IMG/VR virus record: IMGVR_UViG_3300027816_000087
Coordinates: 1-64,000 of that record
Source of the DNA: a virus
Reading direction: 5' to 3' (one strand)
Length of the DNA: 64,000 nt
The notes beneath the pieces are model-generated. The model saw only the letters and a list, made by a program, of their open reading frames with translations. It ran no database searches and was not told the DNA's origin. The stretch's first letter is position 1. The number at the start of each line of letters is the position of its first letter. Positions 6,274 through 16,400 of the stretch are shown one piece after another. Made by a program: the position numbers and the translations under genes.

Positions 6274-6729
6274 TTAGTTATTTGTAATAGATAATGTAGT
6301 TGGAATTTCACATGTACAAAGATTACTTAAACTACTTAAAAGAGTAAGACTTATTTCTTCAGGTCCTGAAACACTAAATGTTCCATAAAATGAAAAATTT
6401 TCATTTAAAACTTGAACTAGATCATTAATGTTATTAACTGTTACACTATTATCACTAATTATATTAAAATAATTAAATTCTCCTATTCCTCCTTCGCAGT
6501 TAGCTCCAGCTAATTGGAAAACTATTCCTGTTGTAGCAGGATAAACAAAACTATCTGTATTTCTTGTTAATGTACAAGTAGAAATGCTTGTAGTTTCACA
6601 ACATAAGTCTGCTGGAACCTCTTTCCATGTAGAAGGTCCATTGGGATGTGATCCTGCTGTGAGAATCAAGCTCCCAGGTACAATTTTTCCTTGTTTGCTG
6701 TACCTTACAAATGCGCGTTTTTTTGACAT
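6274..6729 (-). CDS. Modular tail-appendage protein with KKRAFVRY/WKEV anchor module
   Basis: A 151-aa protein. Residues 1-44 (MSKKRAFVRYSKQGKIVPGS, then LILTAGSHPNGPSTWKEVPADLCC) form a module shared with the proteins at 13211-13681 and 13800-14600; it ends in Cys43-Cys44. The remaining ~105 residues are unrelated to the other two and look like a beta-rich domain (TDSFVYPATTGIVFQLAG ... SLLSSL). The shared N-terminus with divergent C-termini fits a virion-attachment module joined to a variable surface domain. The start follows AAAAACA. Role inferred from modular structure and tail-operon context. Confidence 0.72.
   Translation of the reverse strand: MSKKRAFVRYSKQGKIVPGSLILTAGSHPNGPSTWKEVPADLCCETTSISTCTLTRNTDSFVYPATTGIVFQLAGANCEGGIGEFNYFNIISDNSVTVNNINDLVQVLNENFSFYGTFSVSGPEEISLTLLSSLSNLCTCEIPTTLSITNN
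6598..6729 (-). repeat. KKRAFVRY anchor module, copy 1
   Basis: Codes for the 44-residue N-terminal module ending in Cys-Cys. Related to copies 2 and 3 at protein level, with differences such as SKQGKIVPGSLILTAGSHPN. Confidence 0.8.
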
Positions 6730-6752
6730 TGTTTTTAATTTTTATTTGTTAA

Positions 6753-7253
6753 TTATACACTCTTATTATTTTTTCTTTTTAAAGCAGCCTCTCTCATTTT
6801 TGCTTTTCTTTCTTCACTATGAGGACCAATCTTTTTACCAAGTTTAGCTTTTTTCATCTTTTCTTTAGTTTCTTCTGTGTGACCCTTTCTTTTTTTACCT
6901 CTATTAGGTTGAGGTCTTCCTTTCATAGCTAAACTTCTTTTTATATTAGATTCTTTAGTTATAATTATGTTTTGATTACCTTCCCCTCCATCTGTCATGT
7001 TTACTAAAGGTCCTAATTTTAAATCTTTTCTACCTATTAGTTTTATATAAAATTTTTCTTTCTCTACAGCCTCCTCCCAACTTAAATTCTTTTCAACAAT
7101 TATTATGTTATATCCGTACTTATTAACAATATTGTGCCAATGATTATTTCTATTTTGTTTACTATGTGGTCTCTTTTCATTACCTATACCAACATAAAAT
7201 ATTTCTTGTTTTACTGGATTATAGTGAAAATATATACAATTATTATTGCTCAC
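6753..7253 (-). CDS. GIY-YIG homing endonuclease with NUMOD3 repeats
   Basis: A 166-aa nuclease. The N-terminal GIY-YIG domain is degenerate (IYFHYNP ... FYVGIG), with a catalytic-type R in GNEKRPHSKQNR and a Glu in AVEKEKFYIKLIG. NMTDGGEG follows, as in T4 Seg/I-TevI-like proteins. The C-terminal third contains several NUMOD3-like Lys-rich DNA-binding units (SLAMKGRPQPNRGKKRKGHT, KLGKKIGPHSEERKAKMREA). It starts at a GTG overlapping the upstream gene's TGA; no in-frame ATG precedes the domain. It is a selfish element in the tail operon and is not required for tail structure. Confidence 0.85.
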   Translation of the reverse strand: MSNNNCIYFHYNPVKQEIFYVGIGNEKRPHSKQNRNNHWHNIVNKYGYNIIIVEKNLSWEEAVEKEKFYIKLIGRKDLKLGPLVNMTDGGEGNQNIIITKESNIKRSLAMKGRPQPNRGKKRKGHTEETKEKMKKAKLGKKIGPHSEERKAKMREAALKRKNNKSV

Positions 7254-7849
7254 GAGTACACTCTTATTTCTATTGGGGTGTTATTAGGTATCCCATCTTG
7301 TAAAGCTCCTTCAGTTTGAATAACTAATGTATTAATTGTTGATTCAGACCCACCAACAAATTGTATAGTTTGGCCTAACGAATCACCAGAATTTTGAACA
7401 GTTGGTGATATGGTTACAAAAGTTTTATTTTCATTAAACAAACCAATAGAATTAATATGATATACTCCAACATCATTATACGTAAACCAAATATTCCCAA
7501 TAGTATTCTCTAACACTGTTACTACTGGAGCTCCTTCTACATATGCTAAAGTACTACCTCCCCAATTATTGGGTGTAGTTCCTGTTGCTACAAATGATGT
7601 TCCTACATTATTATTTGGTGCTCCTACATTTGTAAAATCACCTCCAGAATTTTGTATAGTATATGTTACACCTACAATTAAATCTCCATCATTTCTTTCA
7701 GAACCAGTATCTCCACCACTCTGTGTTAATAAAGCTGTATACACTTTATATGAACCAGCTCCACTATCTAATAGAGCGTTCACCTTACAGCAAATAGATT
7801 TTATTTGCTTGTTAATGTTGTTTATCAATTCGTATAGTCCTAGTGCCAT
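7250..7849 (-). CDS. Tail/virion protein with INKQ-CC N-terminal module
   Basis: A 199-aa protein. It opens with a helical segment (LYELINNINKQIKSICC) ending in Cys20-Cys21 that recurs in the next two virion genes. The body is beta-rich and Gly/Thr/Asn-rich. Residues ~60-95 (GVTYTIQNSGG...FTNVGA... VGTSFVATGT) match the 'TYTI...DFT.(I/V)GA...VGT.F.ATG' repeat seen in many phage tail-fibre and virion proteins. It is probably a surface appendage. Its stop overlaps the homing-nuclease start. Confidence 0.72.
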   Translation of the reverse strand: MALGLYELINNINKQIKSICCKVNALLDSGAGSYKVYTALLTQSGGDTGSERNDGDLIVGVTYTIQNSGGDFTNVGAPNNNVGTSFVATGTTPNNWGGSTLAYVEGAPVVTVLENTIGNIWFTYNDVGVYHINSIGLFNENKTFVTISPTVQNSGDSLGQTIQFVGGSESTINTLVIQTEGALQDGIPNNTPIEIRVYS

Positions 7850-7851
7850 AG

Positions 7852-8079
7852 TTATCTAAGTTTTAAAATTTTATTATCATCTATATATGCTTCTGTAGGT
7901 GTAGAAGATGATGACATTAATAACGGTTGATTAACTGTTAATACACCATCATAATAACTTACACCTAATAACACTGTATTTATTGCAATACTTGATATTA
8001 ATGTTTCTTCTGAAACACTAATTGTTAATGCTCCAAACTCCATTCCTTTAATTAACTGATCTTCTATATTATATTCCAT
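7852..8079 (-). CDS. Small tail-operon protein of unknown function
   Basis: A 75-aa, mostly hydrophobic and beta-prone protein (GALTISVSEETLISSIAINT ... PTEAYIDDNKILKLR). It has no Cys pair and no membrane segment of full length. It starts with ATG behind an AAAACAATAAATT leader and is tightly packed between two virion genes. I do not recognise it; a small virion component or assembly factor is possible. Confidence 0.6.
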   Translation of the reverse strand: MEYNIEDQLIKGMEFGALTISVSEETLISSIAINTVLLGVSYYDGVLTVNQPLLMSSSSTPTEAYIDDNKILKLR

Positions 8080-8090
8080 AATTTATTGTT

Positions 8091-8921
8091 TTACCATCCT
8101 GGAGGTATTGTAAAGTTTTCTCTTATAGTTATACCAAATGCTGGTATTGTTGTAACATTATTTACCCAAGATGTACTTGGTGAATATAAACTTATTGGAG
8201 TATTAGAAAGAGTTGCTGTAGCAGGTCCTCCAAAATATGAGTTATAAGGAAAAGGTAATGTAATTGTTCCAGGTAAATTTATTTGATTATACGGTTGATA
8301 TAAATAGTTATATCCTTCAAGTTCATTTCCTGTTGCATCAAAATCAATTCCTATCAAAAATAAACCATCATGAGCTACTCCAGTGCCTAATCCATTAGGA
8401 GAACTCACTCTTTTTACAAATGGTACAGCATTTCTAGTTGATAAAAATGTACTATTAATAATTTTTACAGCATATTGATAATTTTCTTTTATACTTGATA
8501 AAAGACCTGCGTTTGTAATAGTATCAAATGTAGTGTACGTAGGACTTACTGATTGTAATGGTGATAACGATGTTTCTCTGAGAGATCTTGTTAATCTTGT
8601 AGTAGCCCCACCCGTTGCTTCATAGTTTACAATCACCATATTTACAAAATTAGGATTGCTAGCACCGATACTTGCAACTGTATTACCATTATACCAACCA
8701 TTTCTTTGTGCTACAACTCCTTGTCTTAAACATGAATCTAATGAAAGAAACCAACTAGCTCTAAAAAATTCACCTGGTTGTGTTGTTGTGCTAGTTGTTG
8801 TACTAGTAGAAGTTGTAGTGGTACTAGGAGGAGGAGGCGTAGGCTCACAACAAAGCTGTTTGTTAATATTTGTTAACAACTTAAGTGTCTCTTCTAATTT
8901 ATCGTATATTCCTTGTGTCAT
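8091..8921 (-). CDS. Tail/virion protein with INKQ-CC module and Thr/Ser linker
   Basis: A 276-aa protein in three parts. Residues 1-25 are a helical module (KLLTNINKQLCC) ending in Cys24-Cys25. Residues ~26-50 are a low-complexity Pro then Thr/Ser linker, typical of extended, possibly O-glycosylated stalks. Residues ~50-276 are a beta-rich globular domain with many aromatic and Asn residues (GYNYLYQPYNQINLPG). The shared N-terminus and flexible stalk fit a host-binding virion appendage. Receptor unknown. Confidence 0.7.
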   Translation of the reverse strand: MTQGIYDKLEETLKLLTNINKQLCCEPTPPPPSTTTTSTSTTTSTTTQPGEFFRASWFLSLDSCLRQGVVAQRNGWYNGNTVASIGASNPNFVNMVIVNYEATGGATTRLTRSLRETSLSPLQSVSPTYTTFDTITNAGLLSSIKENYQYAVKIINSTFLSTRNAVPFVKRVSSPNGLGTGVAHDGLFLIGIDFDATGNELEGYNYLYQPYNQINLPGTITLPFPYNSYFGGPATATLSNTPISLYSPSTSWVNNVTTIPAFGITIRENFTIPPGW

Positions 8922-8922
8922 A

Positions 8923-10242
8923 TTATCTACTTATTTCTTCCCAATCCATAGAAGCATAAGCTCCTTCACCACCAGATGTTGTGCTAACAGACATTTCTAC
9001 AACTAACTCATAAGGTGTTCCTGTTAAACTATTTCTTTCTAACTGATTGCTAAACAATGCTTCTTTTAGTATGCTTAAATATGGAGATCCTTGATTAGAG
9101 GAGTTTACAAACCCACTAGCTAACACTCTTCCTCCAGTTGCAGATGTAGCTGAAACATTATATTCTACAGAAGAATCGGCTGCTGCTGTTAACCATGATC
9201 CACCAGTAGTTGTAACACCACCATTCACCACTCTCCATTGGTAGTTTTTACCATTACCTAGTCCTAAAAGAGAAACAGCTGTTGGGATAACAATAGCATC
9301 AAGTCTTGTAGATTTAAGTCTTATAGACATAATTGGGTAATATGTACCAGCTACAGCAAAAGTTCTTGGTGCAGTGATGGTTGTACCAGCAGAAAGCTGT
9401 GCACCTCTAAGTTCATAACCTCCCTCAGATATCACTGTAGAACACACTTGTTTTAATGTAGAAGTATCAACTTCATTAGAAGCAAATGATGTATTAAATA
9501 TCTCATAACGCAGTGGTAATGAGGCTGTTGTAATGTATGTAGAAGCTAATACATTAGCATGTTGGAACGTGTGACAAAGAATAAATTGTCCATCAATAAC
9601 AAATCCCATTCTTACAGAACCCACTCCTAACCACTCAAGATCCATCCAAAGAATTTGAGCTTTAGTAAGATCAAGTGTAATTCCTGAAGGACCTGTTCCA
9701 TCTAGTTTATCTCCATTCCAACTCGCTTGAGGAATAGGTGTATTAATTAATGCACCAGTTACAATACTTCGTTTTACAAAAGAAACTGTACTTCCTGCTT
9801 GCTCTAAGTAGAAACCATTATTAGCCCCATAGTATCCCACTCTTTGTGTAAGCCAATTTTTTGCAGGATTCATTACAAAAGTACTAAGAGCTAAGAGTGA
9901 CTTACCTGGTTGATAAGCAAATACTTTGATAGTTTCTCTAATAACAGAAGATCCTAAAGAAGATCCCACTGAAAGGTCTACAAGACCTTGGTTAGCATTA
10001 AATACAGCTGTTCCACCAGTAGCAGTGGCTGTAGCCCACAAATCATTATCATCAAATCTATGACTAGAATCAAACATTGTAAGAGGAGAAGATGTTCTCA
10101 ATCTCCCAAAACTATCTTGTGCTGTAGAAGGAGCAAATGTAATCTCTGTAGGACCTGTTGGAACAACTGGATCATTATTTAAACAGCACACCTTATTGTT
10201 TATACTCTTTAATAAGTATAACATTTGTGAATCTAGATACAT
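8923..10242 (-). CDS. Large virion surface/tail protein
   Basis: A 439-aa protein. Residues 1-20 (LYLLKSINNKVCC) carry the helical module ending in Cys19-Cys20. After a short linker the body reads DSFGRLRTSSPLTMFDSSHR, then SVIRETIKVFAYQPGKS, TQRVGYYGANNGFYLEQ and an ILWMDLEWLGVGSVRMGFVI segment. That 'FGRLRxS.P...FD...RY...R.T..Y..YQPGKS....RIGYFD..NG.F.E' pattern is a widespread phage virion family known from several unrelated tailed phages. It is probably exposed on the tail or capsid. The start is an ATG preceded by AAC. Confidence 0.82.
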   Translation of the reverse strand: MYLDSQMLYLLKSINNKVCCLNNDPVVPTGPTEITFAPSTAQDSFGRLRTSSPLTMFDSSHRFDDNDLWATATATGGTAVFNANQGLVDLSVGSSLGSSVIRETIKVFAYQPGKSLLALSTFVMNPAKNWLTQRVGYYGANNGFYLEQAGSTVSFVKRSIVTGALINTPIPQASWNGDKLDGTGPSGITLDLTKAQILWMDLEWLGVGSVRMGFVIDGQFILCHTFQHANVLASTYITTASLPLRYEIFNTSFASNEVDTSTLKQVCSTVISEGGYELRGAQLSAGTTITAPRTFAVAGTYYPIMSIRLKSTRLDAIVIPTAVSLLGLGNGKNYQWRVVNGGVTTTGGSWLTAAADSSVEYNVSATSATGGRVLASGFVNSSNQGSPYLSILKEALFSNQLERNSLTGTPYELVVEMSVSTTSGGEGAYASMDWEEISR

Positions 10243-10243
10243 G

Positions 10244-11077
10244 TTAAACAGGTATTAATTCGTTATTCATTATTTTTTCTAACTTTCTCTTCACCTTTTT
10301 TTCTATATCTGGTTCTCTTTTAGAAGCAGCAATAAGATGTGTATATCCTAATGCTTTAGCAGCATCTTCAAGAATCCATCCTTTTCCTCTAGAACTTGGA
10401 TGATGATTTGATAATACATCCACTCGATATTTTCTATGTTTTAATAGATGATATATAGCAAACTGCTCATATATCAAACAAGAAAGGTGATGGTTATAAT
10501 CAAATCCTGAATTATCAAGATATTTTATATATTTAATAGCCTCATCCCACCACTCTTTTATAATACCAAGTTTATTAAATGCTATAAACCCACAGTTGTA
10601 TGCTTTTATCTCTTTACAATTAAACCATTCAGGTTTGTCTTTGTAATGTTTATCAGCGTGATCTATTAAGAGCTTATACCAATATTCTTGTGTTTGATCT
10701 TCTACACATTGAAAGCTTGCGTCAGATGTTAATATACTTTGTGGTGGTTTCTTAAACCATATAACATCTATATCAATATGCATGAAAGGCTTGTCTTGTA
10801 TTTTACATGCATGTATCTTTCCCAAACTCCAATGATTCTTATAAACACCTTTCATAACATGCTCTAAATCAGTGTTTATATTATCAAACTCTAGTGCATG
10901 TTTTTCTACAAGCTCTTTTCCTTTCACATCTGTCACCAAATGCACTTCTTTAAACCACTGTTTAGTGTAATGTAAAGAAAGCTTAAAGCAATCAAACAAC
11001 GCTTCCTCTGTATTAAATCCTACATGTTCTCCTTCCATAGGACTTGTCCATAGTGAATACACTGCTCTTTCTATCAT
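10244..11077 (-). CDS. Putative glycosyltransferase (GT-A-like)
   Basis: A 277-aa protein. The DxD motif is visible as D102-I-D104 in MHIDIDVIWFKKP, the usual metal/nucleotide-sugar site of GT-A enzymes. Further family-like features are VHLVTDVKGKELVEK near residue 45, YNCGFIAFNK, and EQFAIYHLLKHRKY. The pattern resembles GT8/GT32-like or DUF6734-like proteins. It lies inside the tail operon and overlaps the following adhesin-type gene by four bases. It may decorate a virion protein or modify the host surface; the acceptor cannot be read from sequence. Confidence 0.65.
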   Translation of the reverse strand: MIERAVYSLWTSPMEGEHVGFNTEEALFDCFKLSLHYTKQWFKEVHLVTDVKGKELVEKHALEFDNINTDLEHVMKGVYKNHWSLGKIHACKIQDKPFMHIDIDVIWFKKPPQSILTSDASFQCVEDQTQEYWYKLLIDHADKHYKDKPEWFNCKEIKAYNCGFIAFNKLGIIKEWWDEAIKYIKYLDNSGFDYNHHLSCLIYEQFAIYHLLKHRKYRVDVLSNHHPSSRGKGWILEDAAKALGYTHLIAASKREPDIEKKVKRKLEKIMNNELIPV

Positions 11078-12651
11078 ACTTTATATTTATCAAATATTCC
11101 TAATTGATCGTATATTTTAGCAATTTGAATAGAAAGCTTTTTAGCTTCTAAGTCTTCTGTATATGTAACACCATTTATTTCATATGTAAGAGCTACAATT
11201 TCTTCTTCATCTTCAAGATTAGAAGCTCCAAGAGCAACAGATAGACCACTTCCATAATAAGCAGGAGTGTATTCTAATATTTCTACATAAACATAAGAAA
11301 TTTGTGATTGAATATAGTTATTTAAATCTTCTATTGTAATAGCTCCTGTATTATCTCTTTTTGTAGGTCTAAAAGTAATATCTTGAATTCCTTCAATAGC
11401 TGTTCTTATTAAAAGACTTCTTTCATTAATTGTAGGAAAATCACTTACATCATATCCTGGAGTGATTTTAATATGAGTTTTATTCCATTTTAATCCTTGA
11501 CCTTTTGTTAATGTATATACTGGGCTACCTAAAAAATCAAAAGCTAGCCAAATAGGAACTCCTCCATCTAATGTATTTTCTAATACATCATTGTAGAATA
11601 GTCTAACACTGGTTGGGTTGTATTCTACTGGATAAAAAATACCTCCCGAAAAGTATCGATATGCAGTCCAAGCACCTTCTTGGATTGTTCCTTTCGATTG
11701 CCATACACCATTATCTGAATCACCTCCTAAATAAGAGCAATTTGTAATATCACTATTATCATTATATTTTGTCTCTCTAAGATTTTGAGCAAGCCATATT
11801 TGTGTTCCTATTTTAACTGTAACATATGTCTTACCATCATTTCCTGTATAAGGATCTAAAGAGCTTGTATCTGACGTATCACCATCATTAAGAAGAAGTT
11901 CTCCAGCTGTTGCTTCTCTCACTAGTCTCACTGAAAGACCATTTGATTTATCATAAGCTTGTTTAATAAAATCTGGAGAATTGAAATTATATACCCAAGA
12001 ATCTGTAGCACTAAAAGATATTGATGTCCAAAAACCACTATAAACACCTATACTAGCAAATACTCCAATATTATTACGTACTCCACCAGGTAAAGCACTA
12101 AAATTATAATCATCTGTTCCTCCACCATTACTTAACCATCCATAAAAAGGATAACCTGTAGAAGTTAATGTAGATTTAAGTTTATTAAAAGAAGATGAAC
12201 TACCACCAGCAAATGTTTGCAATGTATCATAATCTGTATCACTAGGAACTCTCCATTCATTAGGAGCTGTAAGTCCTGTACCACCACTAGGATTTTCTAA
12301 TTTTCTAACATCTGTAACAGCATACCAATTATACAAATAACCATATCCAGGCCATGCTACTGTTTGCATAGCTATTTTAGCTCTATATACTTTATAGGGT
12401 AATGGTTCACTTATAACTTTTAATGTCATCTCTCCTGTATTACTCCAAGATTGAACACTAGTTCCTTCAATTGTTAAATTATTAACAGGTGAAAATCCAT
12501 TAACAGTGAGAGATCCTCCACCACCTCCTCCACCATTATTAATTGCATCAATAACATAGTTAAGATGGGCTAGACGTGCTAGTTCTGTGTCTCCTTGTAT
12601 TTTTCCTAAATAAGGATCAGGACTTTGTGCTTTAATTCTTCTGATTGGCAT
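11074..12651 (-). CDS. Tail protein with FISUMP (Fib_succ_major) domain
   Basis: A 525-aa protein. Residues 1-45 (MPIRRIKAQSPDPYLGKIQG...) are a separate N-terminal module, followed by a Gly-rich hinge. Residues ~105-320 read YLYNWYAVTDVRKL, EWRVPSDTDYDTLQTFAGG, LPGGVRNNIGVF, GFWTSISFSATDSWVYNF, SVRLVRE and IGTQIWLAQNLRETKYNDNS. This is the FISUMP domain, common in surface proteins of Bacteroidota and Fibrobacter and probably lectin-like. The C-terminal ~200 residues are beta-rich and unrecognised. It probably binds host-surface glycans. It is the largest adhesin-like protein of the block. Confidence 0.82.
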   Translation of the reverse strand: MPIRRIKAQSPDPYLGKIQGDTELARLAHLNYVIDAINNGGGGGGGSLTVNGFSPVNNLTIEGTSVQSWSNTGEMTLKVISEPLPYKVYRAKIAMQTVAWPGYGYLYNWYAVTDVRKLENPSGGTGLTAPNEWRVPSDTDYDTLQTFAGGSSSSFNKLKSTLTSTGYPFYGWLSNGGGTDDYNFSALPGGVRNNIGVFASIGVYSGFWTSISFSATDSWVYNFNSPDFIKQAYDKSNGLSVRLVREATAGELLLNDGDTSDTSSLDPYTGNDGKTYVTVKIGTQIWLAQNLRETKYNDNSDITNCSYLGGDSDNGVWQSKGTIQEGAWTAYRYFSGGIFYPVEYNPTSVRLFYNDVLENTLDGGVPIWLAFDFLGSPVYTLTKGQGLKWNKTHIKITPGYDVSDFPTINERSLLIRTAIEGIQDITFRPTKRDNTGAITIEDLNNYIQSQISYVYVEILEYTPAYYGSGLSVALGASNLEDEEEIVALTYEINGVTYTEDLEAKKLSIQIAKIYDQLGIFDKYKV

Positions 12652-12669
12652 GACATATTGTTTTAAATT

Positions 12670-13197
12670 TTAAGCTTCATTTGTTGATAGAGCACCATTA
12701 GATGCTAAGAACACTCTACGAATATTAGTGGGTTGTGAATTATAAGCTGGGCGTCTAGCTTGTGATAGGCGTGATTTAGCTATTCTTGCTACACTCACCT
12801 TATTTCCTTGATTTCCTCCAAGAACATGATATGCTGTATCATCTTCTCCTACATAAAAACCTACATGCCCACCTGATTTTCTAGTGAATGTAAGAACATC
12901 TCCAAGCATTGGAGTGGTCACTCTTACACCAAAATTATTCCAATTGAGAGCCCAAAGAGGTTTTTCTACAACAGGACGCTGCGCTCTATGTATAACAACA
13001 GCAGTGTAGAGTCCACACCAAGGAATCTCATCCGATGTATATACATTCTGTAGTCCTAGTTCTCTAGCCCATCCCATAATAACAGGATTGTGTATAGATC
13101 CCACTGTCTCTGTAACACCAAAAAGCTCTACAGCTTTAAGAAGATGTCTAGGAGCAGGTTCTTGAGCTAACCATTGATATGCTTTAGGTAGGTTCAT
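12670..13197 (-). CDS. Endolysin, CHAP/NlpC-P60-type amidase or peptidase
   Basis: A 175-aa cell-wall hydrolase. The papain-like cysteine is C61 in the EIPWCGLYTA motif and the histidine is H111 in KSGGHVGFYVGED, followed by YHVLGGNQGNKVSVARI. This matches the TIGR02594-type phage endolysin family (TPW-C-a-xF ... G-H-V-G-fv ... vLGGNQ). It has no signal peptide, so release would depend on the holin-like gene downstream in the genome order (14610-14885). The start follows AAAACAA. It lies inside the tail/lysis operon. Confidence 0.88.
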   Translation of the reverse strand: MNLPKAYQWLAQEPAPRHLLKAVELFGVTETVGSIHNPVIMGWARELGLQNVYTSDEIPWCGLYTAVVIHRAQRPVVEKPLWALNWNNFGVRVTTPMLGDVLTFTRKSGGHVGFYVGEDDTAYHVLGGNQGNKVSVARIAKSRLSQARRPAYNSQPTNIRRVFLASNGALSTNEA

Positions 13198-13210
13198 TTG
13201 TTTTATTCTT

Positions 13211-13681
13211 TTAAGCTTCTTGTAAAATTAAGTCAATCCTAAATGGAGAAGGACATAGTGTAAATTCAGTAGTTGTATTTAGTATAATATCTGATCCATT
13301 AAATACAAATGTTCCAATGTTATACCCTAAAATTGATGAAAAATCACTATTTAAGTAATTAATTACATCACTAATACTAGTAAACACAATATTAGGAAGA
13401 AATATAGTATAATTGTGACTAATATAAACTTCACTAGTAAATTCTCCACAGTTTATGCGAATACCAATTTCATTAATTGGTACATTTAAACTTAAATCCC
13501 CATAATTTAACTGTTTTATAACAGGTTGAAAACACTCACCACCATCACAACATTGATCCACTGTCACTTCTTTCCATAAAGAAGACTTATCAGGATATCC
13601 ACCATTAGTAGTGATGATAAGTGATCCAGGTACTATCTCTCCTGATTTAGTGTAGCGTACAAACGCGCGTTTTTTTGACAT
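13211..13681 (-). CDS. Modular tail-appendage protein with KKRAFVRY/WKEV anchor module
   Basis: A 156-aa protein. Residues 1-45 carry the shared module (MSKKRAFVRYTKSGEIVPGS, then LIITTNGGYPDKSSLWKEV...QCC) ending in Cys44-Cys45. The first 36 residues are identical to those of the gene at 13800-14600, yet 25 of 36 codons differ. The C-terminal ~110 residues form an unrelated, probably beta-rich domain (PINEIGIRINCGEFTSEVYI, IIVFT-like strands). Interpreted as an interchangeable virion appendage. Function of the variable domain unknown. Confidence 0.72.
   Translation of the reverse strand: MSKKRAFVRYTKSGEIVPGSLIITTNGGYPDKSSLWKEVTVDQCCDGGECFQPVIKQLNYGDLSLNVPINEIGIRINCGEFTSEVYISHNYTIFLPNIVFTSISDVINYLNSDFSSILGYNIGTFVFNGSDIILNTTTEFTLCPSPFRIDLILQEA
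13547..13681 (-). repeat. KKRAFVRY anchor module, copy 2
   Basis: Codes for a 45-residue module ending in Cys-Cys. Residues 1-36 are identical to copy 3, with 25 of 36 codons different. Confidence 0.85.
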
Positions 13682-13687
13682 GTCTAA

Positions 13688-13786
13688 TTATTTTTTAGGT
13701 CTAGGAAGTGTTGTAGGTCTTGGTCTAGTGGTTCCACCTTTAGGTTTTCCACATCCACATCCGTAAATTGCTGTTTCTTTTATCAT
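13688..13786 (-). CDS. Tiny Cys/Pro-rich peptide (32 aa)
   Basis: A complete ATG-to-TAA frame reading MIKETAIYGCGCGKPK then GGTTRPRPTTLPRPKK. It fills the 118-base gap between the two anchor-module genes. The C-G-C-G motif and the Pro/Arg/Thr tail give it a defined composition. A metal-binding or disulfide-forming virion peptide is imaginable. No family recognised; coding status moderate because of its length. Confidence 0.55.
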   Translation of the reverse strand: MIKETAIYGCGCGKPKGGTTRPRPTTLPRPKK

Positions 13787-13799
13787 GGTTTAAGGTTTT

Positions 13800-14600
13800 T
13801 TATATATCTTTTATTAAACGTACCGATTGTCCATAGAGTTTATCATTACCCTGATACTGTACTCTATGATATTGTGAATCAAAAATTATACAACCAACCC
13901 AACCTGGATTTGTTATATTTTCTTCCTGTGTCCAAAAATTTGCATAATTGTTACCACCTGCTACAATACCTGTAAAATTTGTTGAACTTAAAAATTGTCC
14001 ATCAGTAGATCTATACCCTGAAGGTAAAATTGAAAAACCATATTCATTAGTAGATGAAGAAATTCCAAAACCTATTGTCCACAAACCCGTATTATTATCA
14101 ATAAAACCTGATGTTTTTAATTTACTACCTGGTCCAAATAATAAATCGTTTGGACTACAATCTATGCAATTAAATAAATTTTGCCAGTCTTCTAAAACTG
14201 GAATTCGCCATCCTTCTGGTGCTAAACCTCTAGGGTCCATAATTGCATATCCATTATACAATTTACCATACACTCTTCCAAATGCAGTATCATTATTATA
14301 ATAACACCATGCAGGTGTAGTTAAAGAAGCCCATGCTGCATCATCTGTCACTTCAGGAATAGGATCACCATTTCTAAATGTTGTTCCATCAAAGTTTTCA
14401 AATGCCCAGTTCTCTGTACAAAAAGGTGTTATTGGAGGACAATTCCCACCATTATCACCATCACCACAACACTTATCAGCAATTACCTCTTGCCACAATG
14501 AACTTTTATCTGGGTAGCCTCCATTGGTAGTAATAATTAACGACCCTGGAACTATCTCACCAGATTTTGTATAACGTACAAATGCTCTTTTCTTGCTCAT
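13800..14600 (-). CDS. Anchor-module protein with C-terminal FISUMP domain
   Basis: A 266-aa protein. Residues 1-45 are the KKRAFVRY...WQEV...KCC module ending in Cys44-Cys45. Residues ~60-266 are a FISUMP/Fib_succ_major domain: GKLYNGYAIMDPRGLAPEGW, RIPVLEDWQNLF, LPSGYRSTDGQFL, YANFWTQEE, and the terminal GQSVRLIKD. It therefore joins the virion module of the small appendages to the adhesin fold of the 525-aa tail protein, strong evidence for domain swapping in this operon. Probably a glycan-binding receptor protein. Starts with ATG after AACTAACAAT. Confidence 0.82.
   Translation of the reverse strand: MSKKRAFVRYTKSGEIVPGSLIITTNGGYPDKSSLWQEVIADKCCGDGDNGGNCPPITPFCTENWAFENFDGTTFRNGDPIPEVTDDAAWASLTTPAWCYYNNDTAFGRVYGKLYNGYAIMDPRGLAPEGWRIPVLEDWQNLFNCIDCSPNDLLFGPGSKLKTSGFIDNNTGLWTIGFGISSSTNEYGFSILPSGYRSTDGQFLSSTNFTGIVAGGNNYANFWTQEENITNPGWVGCIIFDSQYHRVQYQGNDKLYGQSVRLIKDI
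14466..14600 (-). repeat. KKRAFVRY anchor module, copy 3
   Basis: Codes for the 45-residue module ending in Cys-Cys, joined to a FISUMP domain. Protein-identical to copy 2 over residues 1-36. Confidence 0.85.
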
Positions 14601-15349: not shown

Positions 15350-15877
15350 ATGCTGATGAGTGAAATCAATTATGAAGAGAAATTAGAGTACAAACTTATT
15401 GGAGAATTCAAAAGATTGTTCTATAGAAAGATGGGCTATGAGCCTGTTGTCATCTCTAGAAATCACAAAGAATTAGATCCAACAAAAGATGGACATTATG
15501 AATTAAAACCTGTAAATCTAAAAAGTTTAAGAGAGTGGTTTAATGAAATCACGCCTTTTAAAAGTGGTGAAAGATTAAAATTAGAAACACGAAAAAGGTA
15601 TAGAGAAGTTGTACATTTTCGTATGATTTATTCTTTTATAGCAAGAATGATGGGTCATTCCTTTGTTGGGATAGGTAGAGCATTAGGTAGAGATCATAGT
15701 ACTATTATGCATAATGTTCAAACTACCAAAGATCTTTTAGAAACAAACCCTCAGTTTAGACAAATCTATTCTGAAATATTTGAATATATAAAAGAAAAAA
15801 TACAAAAAAATGACTCAAAACTTCTGGAATGTAGCAATCAGACACAGGATAACGATGAACCAACTCTACTTTCTTGA
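15350..15877 (+). CDS. DnaA domain IV-like DNA-binding protein
   Basis: A 175-aa protein. Residues ~80-150 read RYREVVHFRMIYSFIARMMG, then HSFVGIGRALGRDHSTIMHN. The signature G-R-x-x-G-R-D115-H-S-T-I-x-H is that of the C-terminal DNA-binding domain of DnaA. No AAA+ ATPase domain is present. The N-terminal ~80 residues are unrecognised. As first gene of the replication operon it is a candidate origin-recognition protein or a competitor for host DnaA boxes. Starts MLMS; an in-frame ATG two codons later is an alternative. Confidence 0.85.
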   Translation: MLMSEINYEEKLEYKLIGEFKRLFYRKMGYEPVVISRNHKELDPTKDGHYELKPVNLKSLREWFNEITPFKSGERLKLETRKRYREVVHFRMIYSFIARMMGHSFVGIGRALGRDHSTIMHNVQTTKDLLETNPQFRQIYSEIFEYIKEKIQKNDSKLLECSNQTQDNDEPTLLS

Positions 15878-16400
15878 TTGCTGTAGATATCGCATACAAC
15901 CAGATAGTCTTATAAACAAAAATGCAGAAGCTATGATATGCCAATCTAAAGGATTGATATCTGAAGATGGCATACTTACACCAAAAGCTTTGCAGATACT
16001 AGAAGAGTTAGACATCTATGTTGTAAAAACTAAGAAAAAGGTGGCTGCTGAAGTGTTAGGTGAAGACTTCATGACGAAGATTAAAGAGTATAGGGAGATA
16101 TTCCCTGCTAAACGTCTTCCATCAGGTGAGCTAGCTAGACAAACAGTAAATGAGCTAAAAGACAAATTCGTGTGGTTTTTCAAAACCTACCCCGAATTTA
16201 CATGGGAACTTGTATTAGATGCTACAGATTATTATGTAGCTAGATACGCAAAAACTGATTATTTGTATATGCAAACTAGTAGTTATTTTATAAAGAAAAA
16301 GACAGATTCTAGTGGAGGATATACATCTAAACTAGCAGATACGTGTCAACAGTTATTAGATAACCCAAATATTGTAAACGAAATAAACGAAATGGTATGA
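15810..16400 (+). CDS. Hypothetical replication-operon protein
   Basis: A 196-aa protein. The first ATG overlaps the DnaA-like gene by 68 bases; an internal ATG at 15855 (MNQLYFLDCCRYRI) would shorten the overlap. The N-terminal half resembles a small helical domain (LYFLDCCRYRIQPDSLINKN ... ILTPKALQILEEL). The second half contains SGELARQTVNELKDKFVWFF and repeated aromatic residues. No known motif identified. Its place between the DnaA-like and DnaB-like genes makes a helicase loader or initiator accessory plausible but unproven. Confidence 0.65.
   Translation: MTQNFWNVAIRHRITMNQLYFLDCCRYRIQPDSLINKNAEAMICQSKGLISEDGILTPKALQILEELDIYVVKTKKKVAAEVLGEDFMTKIKEYREIFPAKRLPSGELARQTVNELKDKFVWFFKTYPEFTWELVLDATDYYVARYAKTDYLYMQTSSYFIKKKTDSSGGYTSKLADTCQQLLDNPNIVNEINEMV

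What the first reader, a model, noticed from the sequence alone, without database searches (positions are those of the whole stretch)
6598..14600. Six tail proteins share two N-terminal modules that both end in a Cys-Cys pair
Three proteins open with the ~45-residue KKRAFVRY...W(K/Q)EV...CC module (6598-6603, 13547-13552, 14466-14471). Three others open with a ~20-25-residue I-N-(K/N)-(Q/K)...CC helix (7787-7792, 8847-8852, 10183-10188). After the Cys pair the sequences are unrelated. Adjacent cysteines at the same junction in both families suggest disulfide or metal-linked mounting of interchangeable tail-surface domains. A 32-aa C-G-C-G peptide is encoded among them.
Basis: seen in the sequence. 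Interest (0 to 1): 0.75.

Follow-up and report, generated by a model that had tools for sequence, protein, structure and literature searches.

The report
Cysteine-capped mounts for phage receptor-binding domains
This crAss-like phage encodes six proteins, probably of the tail, that hang very different, often lectin-like, domains on two small reusable N-terminal mounts, each ending in a side-by-side cysteine pair that most relatives keep; with a conserved 20-32-residue Cys-Gly-Cys-Gly peptide encoded among them, it looks like a plug-in receptor-binding system whose parts may be locked together by disulfide bonds.

Summary
Module A (about 44 aa) ends in Cys-Cys at 6598-6603, 13547-13552 and 14466-14471; module B (about 20 aa) at 7787-7792, 8847-8852 and 10183-10188. 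One correction: the payloads of 6274-6729 and 13211-13681 are remote homologues, not unrelated.

Module A is an unnamed domain: no significant Pfam, PHROG or PDB match. Of 91 distinct copies in IMG/VR viral contigs, 84 keep both cysteines, 7 have neither, none has one. Module B is a two-heptad coiled-coil helix; at least six homologues replace CC with X-Gly and one keeps a single Cys.

"Interchangeable mounting" is well supported. The 8923-10242 payload, a lectin-like fold, sits on about ten different N-termini in other phages. Payload families are shared between mounts A and B, and apparently B and a third, Cys-free mount. The phage is Crassvirales-like.

The CGCG peptide is a conserved microprotein (24 DNA versions). 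Disulfide locking is plausible, given the published disulfide-stabilised crassvirus tail, but not shown.

The parts
14466..14600 (-). Module A mount (45 aa, ends CC at 14466-14471)
13800..14465 (-). Payload of 13800-14600: Fib_succ_major domain (PF09603)
   Evidence: E 3.8e-31
13688..13786 (-). CGCG microprotein, 32 aa (MIKETAIYGCGCGKPK...RPKK), ending 6 nt before the module A gene 13211-13681
   Evidence: 24 distinct DNA versions in relatives
13547..13681 (-). Module A mount (45 aa, ends CC at 13547-13552)
   Evidence: AF2 of 48 aa: pLDDT 86, three strands
13211..13546 (-). Payload of 13211-13681, about 110 aa; family shared remotely with 6274-6597
12670..13197 (-). CHAP/NlpC-like peptidase, likely endolysin or tail lysozyme, within the cassette
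   Evidence: PHROG 1259, 1e-26
12532..12651 (-). Third N-terminal mount, no cysteine (MPIRRIKAQSPDPYLGKIQGDTELARLAHLNYVIDAIN)
   Evidence: eight versions; collagen-like repeats follow it in L028, L033 and L038
11074..12531 (-). Payload with Fib_succ_major stretches
   Evidence: E 9.2e-26
10244..11077 (-). DUF6734 protein, glycosyltransferase-like by a weak second match; within the cassette
   Evidence: DUF6734 E 8.3e-38
10183..10242 (-). Module B mount (20 aa helix, CC at 10183-10188)
   Evidence: AF2 helix 5-23
8923..10182 (-). Payload: lectin-like (ConA-type jelly roll) domain, PHROG 1645
8847..8921 (-). Module B mount (25 aa, CC at 8847-8852), followed by a Pro/Thr-rich linker
8091..8846 (-). 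Payload of 8091-8921, no known family
7787..7849 (-). Module B mount (21 aa, CC at 7787-7792)
7250..7786 (-). Payload of 7250-7849; C-terminal half resembles DUF285 proteins of Flavobacterium phages; its start (YKVYTALLTQSGGD) recurs in other proteins, once on the third mount
6598..6729 (-). Module A mount (44 aa, CC at 6598-6603)
6274..6597 (-). Payload of 6274-6729

Best explanation
The cassette encodes appendage proteins of a Crassvirales-like phage tail. Each has a short N-terminal mount that docks on, or trimerises at, the tail and a swappable outer domain that touches the host surface. Module B is a short coiled coil, probably trimeric; module A is a small beta domain that can occur in tandem. 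In both, the Cys pair sits where the chain leaves the mount for the payload. Most likely the cysteines are reduced while the virion assembles in the cytoplasm and oxidise after lysis. They would then make disulfides between chains of one fibre, or between fibre and neighbour, and lock the payload in place. Shown by sequence: the modules, the near-invariant all-or-none pair in A, the coiled-coil pattern of B, and the shuffling of payloads. Predicted: the lectin-like fold of one payload. Inferred: tail location, trimeric state, receptor binding, and the disulfide itself.
For: Module A: 84 of 91 distinct copies have CC, 7 have neither Cys, 0 have one. Module B: hydrophobic residues at -1, -4, -8, -11 and -15 from CC; power at period 3.5 is 17.0 against a maximum of 7.2 in 2,000 shuffles. 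Collagen-like G-X-Y repeats, which need three chains, follow mount B closely in L010, L015 and L029 and follow the third mount in L028, L033 and L038. Payload 8923-10242 resembles L-type/legume lectins and the receptor-binding domain of phage TM4 gp23 (best E 4.5e-8, TM-scores only about 0.3-0.6). It occurs on about ten kinds of N-terminus, with 20 changes of mount class on its tree. Payload families are shared between mounts A and B. crAss_MUZ is found in the phage and in all five records over 80 kb of the first module A set. PMC10172136 reports that the crassvirus fibre gp22 is a trimer docking by residues 1-26 and that disulfides join hub and ring proteins. Cys makes up 3.35% of the structural cluster outside the window but 0.07% of the six large proteins at 27.7-63.7 kb, the likely cargo.
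Against: Some homologues keep the mount without CC (7 module A, at least six module B) and one module B has a single Cys, so the link is dispensable. In module B the pair falls on coiled-coil positions e and f, not the core, so an interchain bond is not an obvious geometric fit. Tandem module A (16 of 84 proteins) and module-A-only proteins with Thr-rich tails fit a bead-like domain as well as a docking peptide. The third mount carries collagen-like stalks without any Cys. No structure, proteomics or redox data exist. gp22 of phicrAss001 has no cysteine in its N-terminal dock.
Confidence: 0.5

Rival explanations
1. The Cys pairs bind a metal ion (zinc or iron) between chains and thus stiffen the mount, instead of forming disulfides.
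For: Three chains with two cysteines each would give six ligands around one axis; metal sites in phage fibres and spikes are known (general knowledge). The loss of both Cys together in module A fits a shared ligand set.
Against: No conserved histidine near the pair in alignment A2. A crassvirus tail is known to be stabilised by disulfides (PMC10172136). In module B the pair is at positions e/f, away from the axis.
Confidence: 0.15
2. The pair is a folding or packing feature kept by descent; the cysteines stay reduced and do no linking.
For: CC is replaced by X-Gly without loss of the mount. A conserved CC also occurs in the replication-side protein 15810-16400, which is unlikely to be in the virion.
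Against: All-or-none behaviour over 91 module A copies with divergence elsewhere; the same junction in two unrelated mounts; Cys concentrated in the structural cluster and nearly absent from likely cargo.
Confidence: 0.25
3. The N-terminal modules are conserved mainly as DNA recombination arms that let payloads be exchanged, with no common protein role.
For: Payload swapping right behind the module is common.
Against: Third codon positions of the two closest window copies of module A are little conserved (16 of 45 identical) while positions 1 and 2 are (39 and 41 of 45): selection acts on the protein. Payload 1645 is mounted on many unrelated N-termini.
Confidence: 0.04
4. The proteins are not part of the tail: they decorate the capsid or are lysis-related or secreted factors, since the cassette also holds a CHAP peptidase and small hydrophobic-looking proteins.
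For: The cassette lies apart from the main structural cluster. Capsid fibres exist in phicrAss001 (gp21, gp29; PMC10172136). PHROGs files family 1645 under head and packaging.
Against: In phicrAss001 the genes gp22-gp26 (tailspike, C-type lectin, hydrolase, CHAP) also directly precede the lysis genes gp27-gp28. Lectin-like and collagen-like payloads fit host-binding fibres.
Confidence: 0.2

Closest known systems
Tail fibre docking of Crassvirales phicrAss001 (gp22 on the gp38/gp39 hub; PMC10172136)
   Same: A short N-terminal segment (residues 1-26) of a trimeric fibre docks in the hub; tail parts are stabilised by disulfides; fibre genes sit beside lysis genes.
   Different: No recognisable sequence similarity to modules A or B, and no Cys in the gp22 N-terminus.
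Modular phage receptor-binding proteins with conserved N-terminal anchor and variable C-terminal domain
   Same: Conserved mount, exchangeable outer domain, horizontal transfer of payloads.
   Different: Here several mount types coexist in one genome, two of them ending in Cys-Cys, one repeatable in tandem.
N-terminal connectors of Bacillus endospore appendages (Ena pili)
   Same: As recalled, a flexible N-terminal connector with cysteines, including adjacent ones, links subunits by disulfides.
   Different: Unrelated organism and assembly; recalled from memory, papers located but not read.
Cys-Cys trimer knot of fibrillar collagen type III
   Same: As recalled, two adjacent cysteines per chain beside a triple helix cross-link three chains; here CC lies close before collagen-like repeats in three mount B proteins.
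   Different: Most payloads are not collagen-like; the knot geometry is untested here.

Membership tests
Crassvirales (crAss-like phages) | Crassvirus muzzle protein (gp44 family) | tested here: met
   L004:463-5010 matches PF25731 crAss_MUZ at 4.9e-23, above cut-off
Crassvirales (crAss-like phages) | Ring proteins beside the muzzle gene | tested here: met
   L004:5365-6222 to gp43 (phmmer 7e-5) and L004:6228-6902 to gp40 (blastp 9e-4), weak but in order
Crassvirales (crAss-like phages) | Large terminase, portal and major capsid protein of the crAss type | tested here: inconclusive
   gp19, gp20 and gp32 find no convincing match; the record may be incomplete
Known domain family for module A (Pfam, PHROGs, PDB) | Any match above threshold | tested here: not met
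   No significant hit for 69 members; no PDB sequence or fold hit
PHROG 1645 virion structural protein (payload of 8923-10242) | Full-length profile match | tested here: met
   E 4.4e-134, residues 23-437
L-type/legume-lectin (ConA-like) fold for the same payload | Structural match over the jelly roll | tested here: met
   281 Foldseek hits at E<=0.001; lectin hits with TM-score up to 0.60 by target length, on a model of pLDDT 76
L-type/legume-lectin (ConA-like) fold for the same payload | Sugar binding | not testable with these tools
   needs a glycan-binding assay
Collagen-type Cys-Cys trimer knot | Two adjacent Cys per chain next to a trimeric stalk | tested here: inconclusive
   CC followed by G-X-Y repeats in only three mount B proteins
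Collagen-type Cys-Cys trimer knot | Interchain disulfides | not testable with these tools
   needs non-reducing gels or mass spectrometry
Disulfide-linked N-terminal connectors (Ena-like) | N-terminal connector with Cys joining neighbouring subunits | not tested
   recalled analogy only; no fold match of module A to anything in PDB

The most novel reading that the evidence does not exclude
The CGCG microprotein (20-32 aa, YGCGCGKP core, usually a Lys/Pro-rich end) is a phage-encoded thiol-disulfide catalyst or cross-linker that oxidises or bridges the Cys-Cys mounts and so locks exchangeable receptor-binding domains onto the virion.
Probability: 0.15. Interest if true: 0.85.

Novelty: new variant of a known kind. 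Interest (0 to 1): 0.58.

Why it matters
Crassviruses are abundant phages of Bacteroidota, and how they change host range is an open question. A small set of standard mounts with exchangeable lectin-like and other payloads gives a concrete, testable part list. The anchor sequences (modules A, B and the third mount) allow receptor-binding domains to be recognised in environmental crassvirus genomes where they carry no annotation. If the Cys pairs do lock the fibres, it would be a redox-timed step of virion maturation, and the CGCG microprotein could be a very small virus-encoded redox factor.

Tried and rejected
Invariant Cys pair: rejected by homologues without it. DNA-level conservation as recombination arm: rejected by codon-position counts. 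Module A as a known fold: the PDB search gave nothing; BFVD gave one plausible relative, A0A7S9SUE7 of Virus NIOZ-UU157 (37% identity over 43 columns, probability 1.00, but E 0.17). Module A in one genome each of 84,980 bacterial and archaeal species: no relative found by the pattern scan; in 50,697 phage records: none by tblastn. Fusion of the CGCG peptide to module A by stop readthrough: considered because they are in frame in the window (6-nt gap), but the peptide and module A are out of frame in relatives such as L016, L035 and L036 (spacings against ORF starts), so it is a separate gene. Similarity of L004:9717-10997 (FELLISKVCCLSEI) to module B: most of its homologues keep only one Cys there, so superficial. 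Link between absence of the CGCG peptide and CC-less module A: 4 of 10 against 1 of 21 contig groups, Fisher p 0.027; grouped by hand, few, related and partly fragmentary, and no such trend for module B, so only suggestive. Sequence search of two structural proteins against PDB: nothing.
Full report
What is there. The window is part of an 89,072-base virus record, G000. Between two blocks of plus-strand genes lies a minus-strand cassette, about 6.1-15.2 kb. It holds the six proteins of the finding, a CHAP/NlpC-like peptidase, two small hydrophobic-looking proteins, a DUF6734 gene and a GIY-YIG/NUMOD3-like gene. All six Cys-Cys pairs are at the stated coordinates. Six of 13 cassette genes have CC in their first 50 residues, against 0.18 on average in shuffled proteins, maximum 3 in 5,000 trials. 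The six are two families, so this is about two independent events.

Which phage. The gene L004:463-5010 matches the Pfam crassvirus muzzle family at 4.9e-23, and neighbouring genes match ring proteins gp43 and gp40 of phicrAss001 weakly but in order. The muzzle family was also found in all five records over 80 kb of the first module A set. I call it Crassvirales-like. Terminase, portal and capsid matches were not convincing and the record may be incomplete. Near-identical stretches (L006, L008, L009) come from other IMG/VR records; that these are freshwater samples is my recollection of the sample ids, not a tool result.

Module A. A profile built from the three copies and iterated finds 91 distinct copies in the fetched viral loci: 84 have CC, 7 have neither Cys, none has a single Cys. 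It starts at the N-terminus in nearly all 84 proteins; 16 carry two copies in tandem, and some proteins are little more than the module with a Thr-rich tail. It has no significant match in Pfam, PHROGs or PDB, none in the phage collection by tblastn and none in the genome-contig scan. The AlphaFold2 model of the 48-residue module, made with 69 sequences, has three strands and a mean pLDDT of 86; the CC lies in the less confident tail after the last strand. Codon positions show selection on protein.

Module B. Thirty-one sequences aligned on CC have hydrophobic residues at -1 (100%), -4 (71%, otherwise Asn), -8 (94%), -11 (94%) and -15 (74%). Power at period 3.5 is 17.0, shuffled mean 4.4, maximum 7.2. 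This is a short coiled coil; with -1 as position d, the pair falls at e and f. Relatives without the pair exist: L013:7804, L028:667, L040:6897, L148:1445, L055:4303 and L014:5514, with X-Gly in its place, and L039:6046 with one Cys. Trimeric state is inferred from collagen-like repeats close behind the mount in L010, L015 and L029 and from the published trimeric fibre gp22.

Third mount. 11074-12651 opens with MPIRRIKAQSPDPYLGKIQGDTELARLAHLNYVIDAIN. Eight versions occur in relatives, none with CC, three followed by collagen-like repeats. So a Cys pair is not the general solution even within this cassette.

Payloads. The payload of 8923-10242 is PHROG 1645, about 60% identical to proteins of cyanophages and of phage HMO-2011. 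In S-RIM12 the similarity starts at residue 21, right behind the CC. Across 81 copies the same domain sits on about ten kinds of N-terminus; its tree needs 20 changes of mount class and 8 of CC state (a quick tree with many weak branches). Phages with several of these mounts also carry crAss_MUZ. Its model (pLDDT 76, pTM 0.71) matches legume and other L-type lectins and the receptor-binding domain of TM4 gp23. The E-values are good but TM-scores modest, so I claim the fold class, not sugar binding. The Foldseek list also shows toxin binding domains that share this common lectin fold; that says nothing about toxicity here. Fib_succ_major (PF09603) is the payload of 13800-14600 and its family occurs on mounts A and B; a second family is likewise shared by A and B. 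The start of the 7250-7849 payload (YKVYTALLTQSGGD) recurs on the third mount in L013; this was seen by eye, not scored. Of 103 payloads, 36 clusters were found. The payloads of 6274-6729 and 13211-13681 are remote homologues, so 'unrelated' in the finding is wrong for that pair.

The CGCG peptide. MIKETAIYGCGCGKPK...RPKK at 13688-13786 is a conserved gene. Profile scores of its relatives are 37.6 bits and above; the next small ORF scores 7.0. A pattern scan of 2.9 million viral contigs found 39 stretches, a few of them chance matches. The peptide family has 24 distinct DNA versions with synonymous variation in Gly, Pro, Lys and Tyr codons. In about half of the versions it ends 8-70 nt before a module A gene. 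Cys-Gly-Cys peptides are known as mimics of protein disulfide isomerase (general knowledge; one search located papers holding the terms, not read). That the peptide acts on the mounts is speculation.

Cysteine distribution. The structural cluster outside the window has 3.35% Cys and 26 CC; the six large proteins at 27.7-63.7 kb, which I take for ejected cargo by position and size, have 8 Cys in 11,973 residues and no CC. This fits cysteines used where the virion meets an oxidising outside. But 15810-16400, a replication-side protein, also has a CC kept in relatives.

Conclusion. The mounts and the exchange of payloads are shown by sequence. The link is likely disulfide by analogy with the crassvirus tail structure (PMC10172136), but it is dispensable in some homologues and untested. 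Known in kind (modular receptor-binding proteins), new in form (Cys-capped mounts, unnamed domain, conserved CGCG microprotein).

Noticed in passing
window 13688-13786 (-) and relatives such as L013, L034, L036, L139: Conserved 20-32-aa microprotein with YGCGCGKP core and usually a Lys/Pro-rich end; 24 DNA versions, often 8-12 nt upstream of a module A gene.
   Followed up: yes
window 15810-16400 (+): Replication-side protein with YFLDCC at residues 20-25; a CC at this position recurs in relatives. No Pfam match.
   Followed up: partly
L004:9015-18138 (record 73-82 kb): Run of Cys-rich proteins with Thr-rich linkers (up to 16% Cys) between the muzzle/ring genes and the contig end, where phicrAss001 has its tail hub genes.
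   Followed up: partly
L048, L052, L059, L076, L084, L087: Short proteins of module A plus only a poly-Thr tail; the Thr repeats could allow slippage or recombination with following payload genes.
   Followed up: no
window 10244-11077; L004:11096-11722: Glycosyltransferase-like genes (DUF6734; Glyco_transf_34) near Thr-rich appendage proteins; could glycosylate the virion.
   Followed up: no
L004:18186-19589: Metalloprotease-like protein with five thrombospondin type 3 repeats in the phage genome.
   Followed up: no
window 27732-63734 (-): Six large proteins (851-5259 aa), nearly free of cysteine (8 in 11,973 residues).
   Followed up: partly
window 6753-7253 (-): GIY-YIG/NUMOD3-like gene (homing-endonuclease-like, weak matches) inserted among the mount genes.
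   Followed up: no
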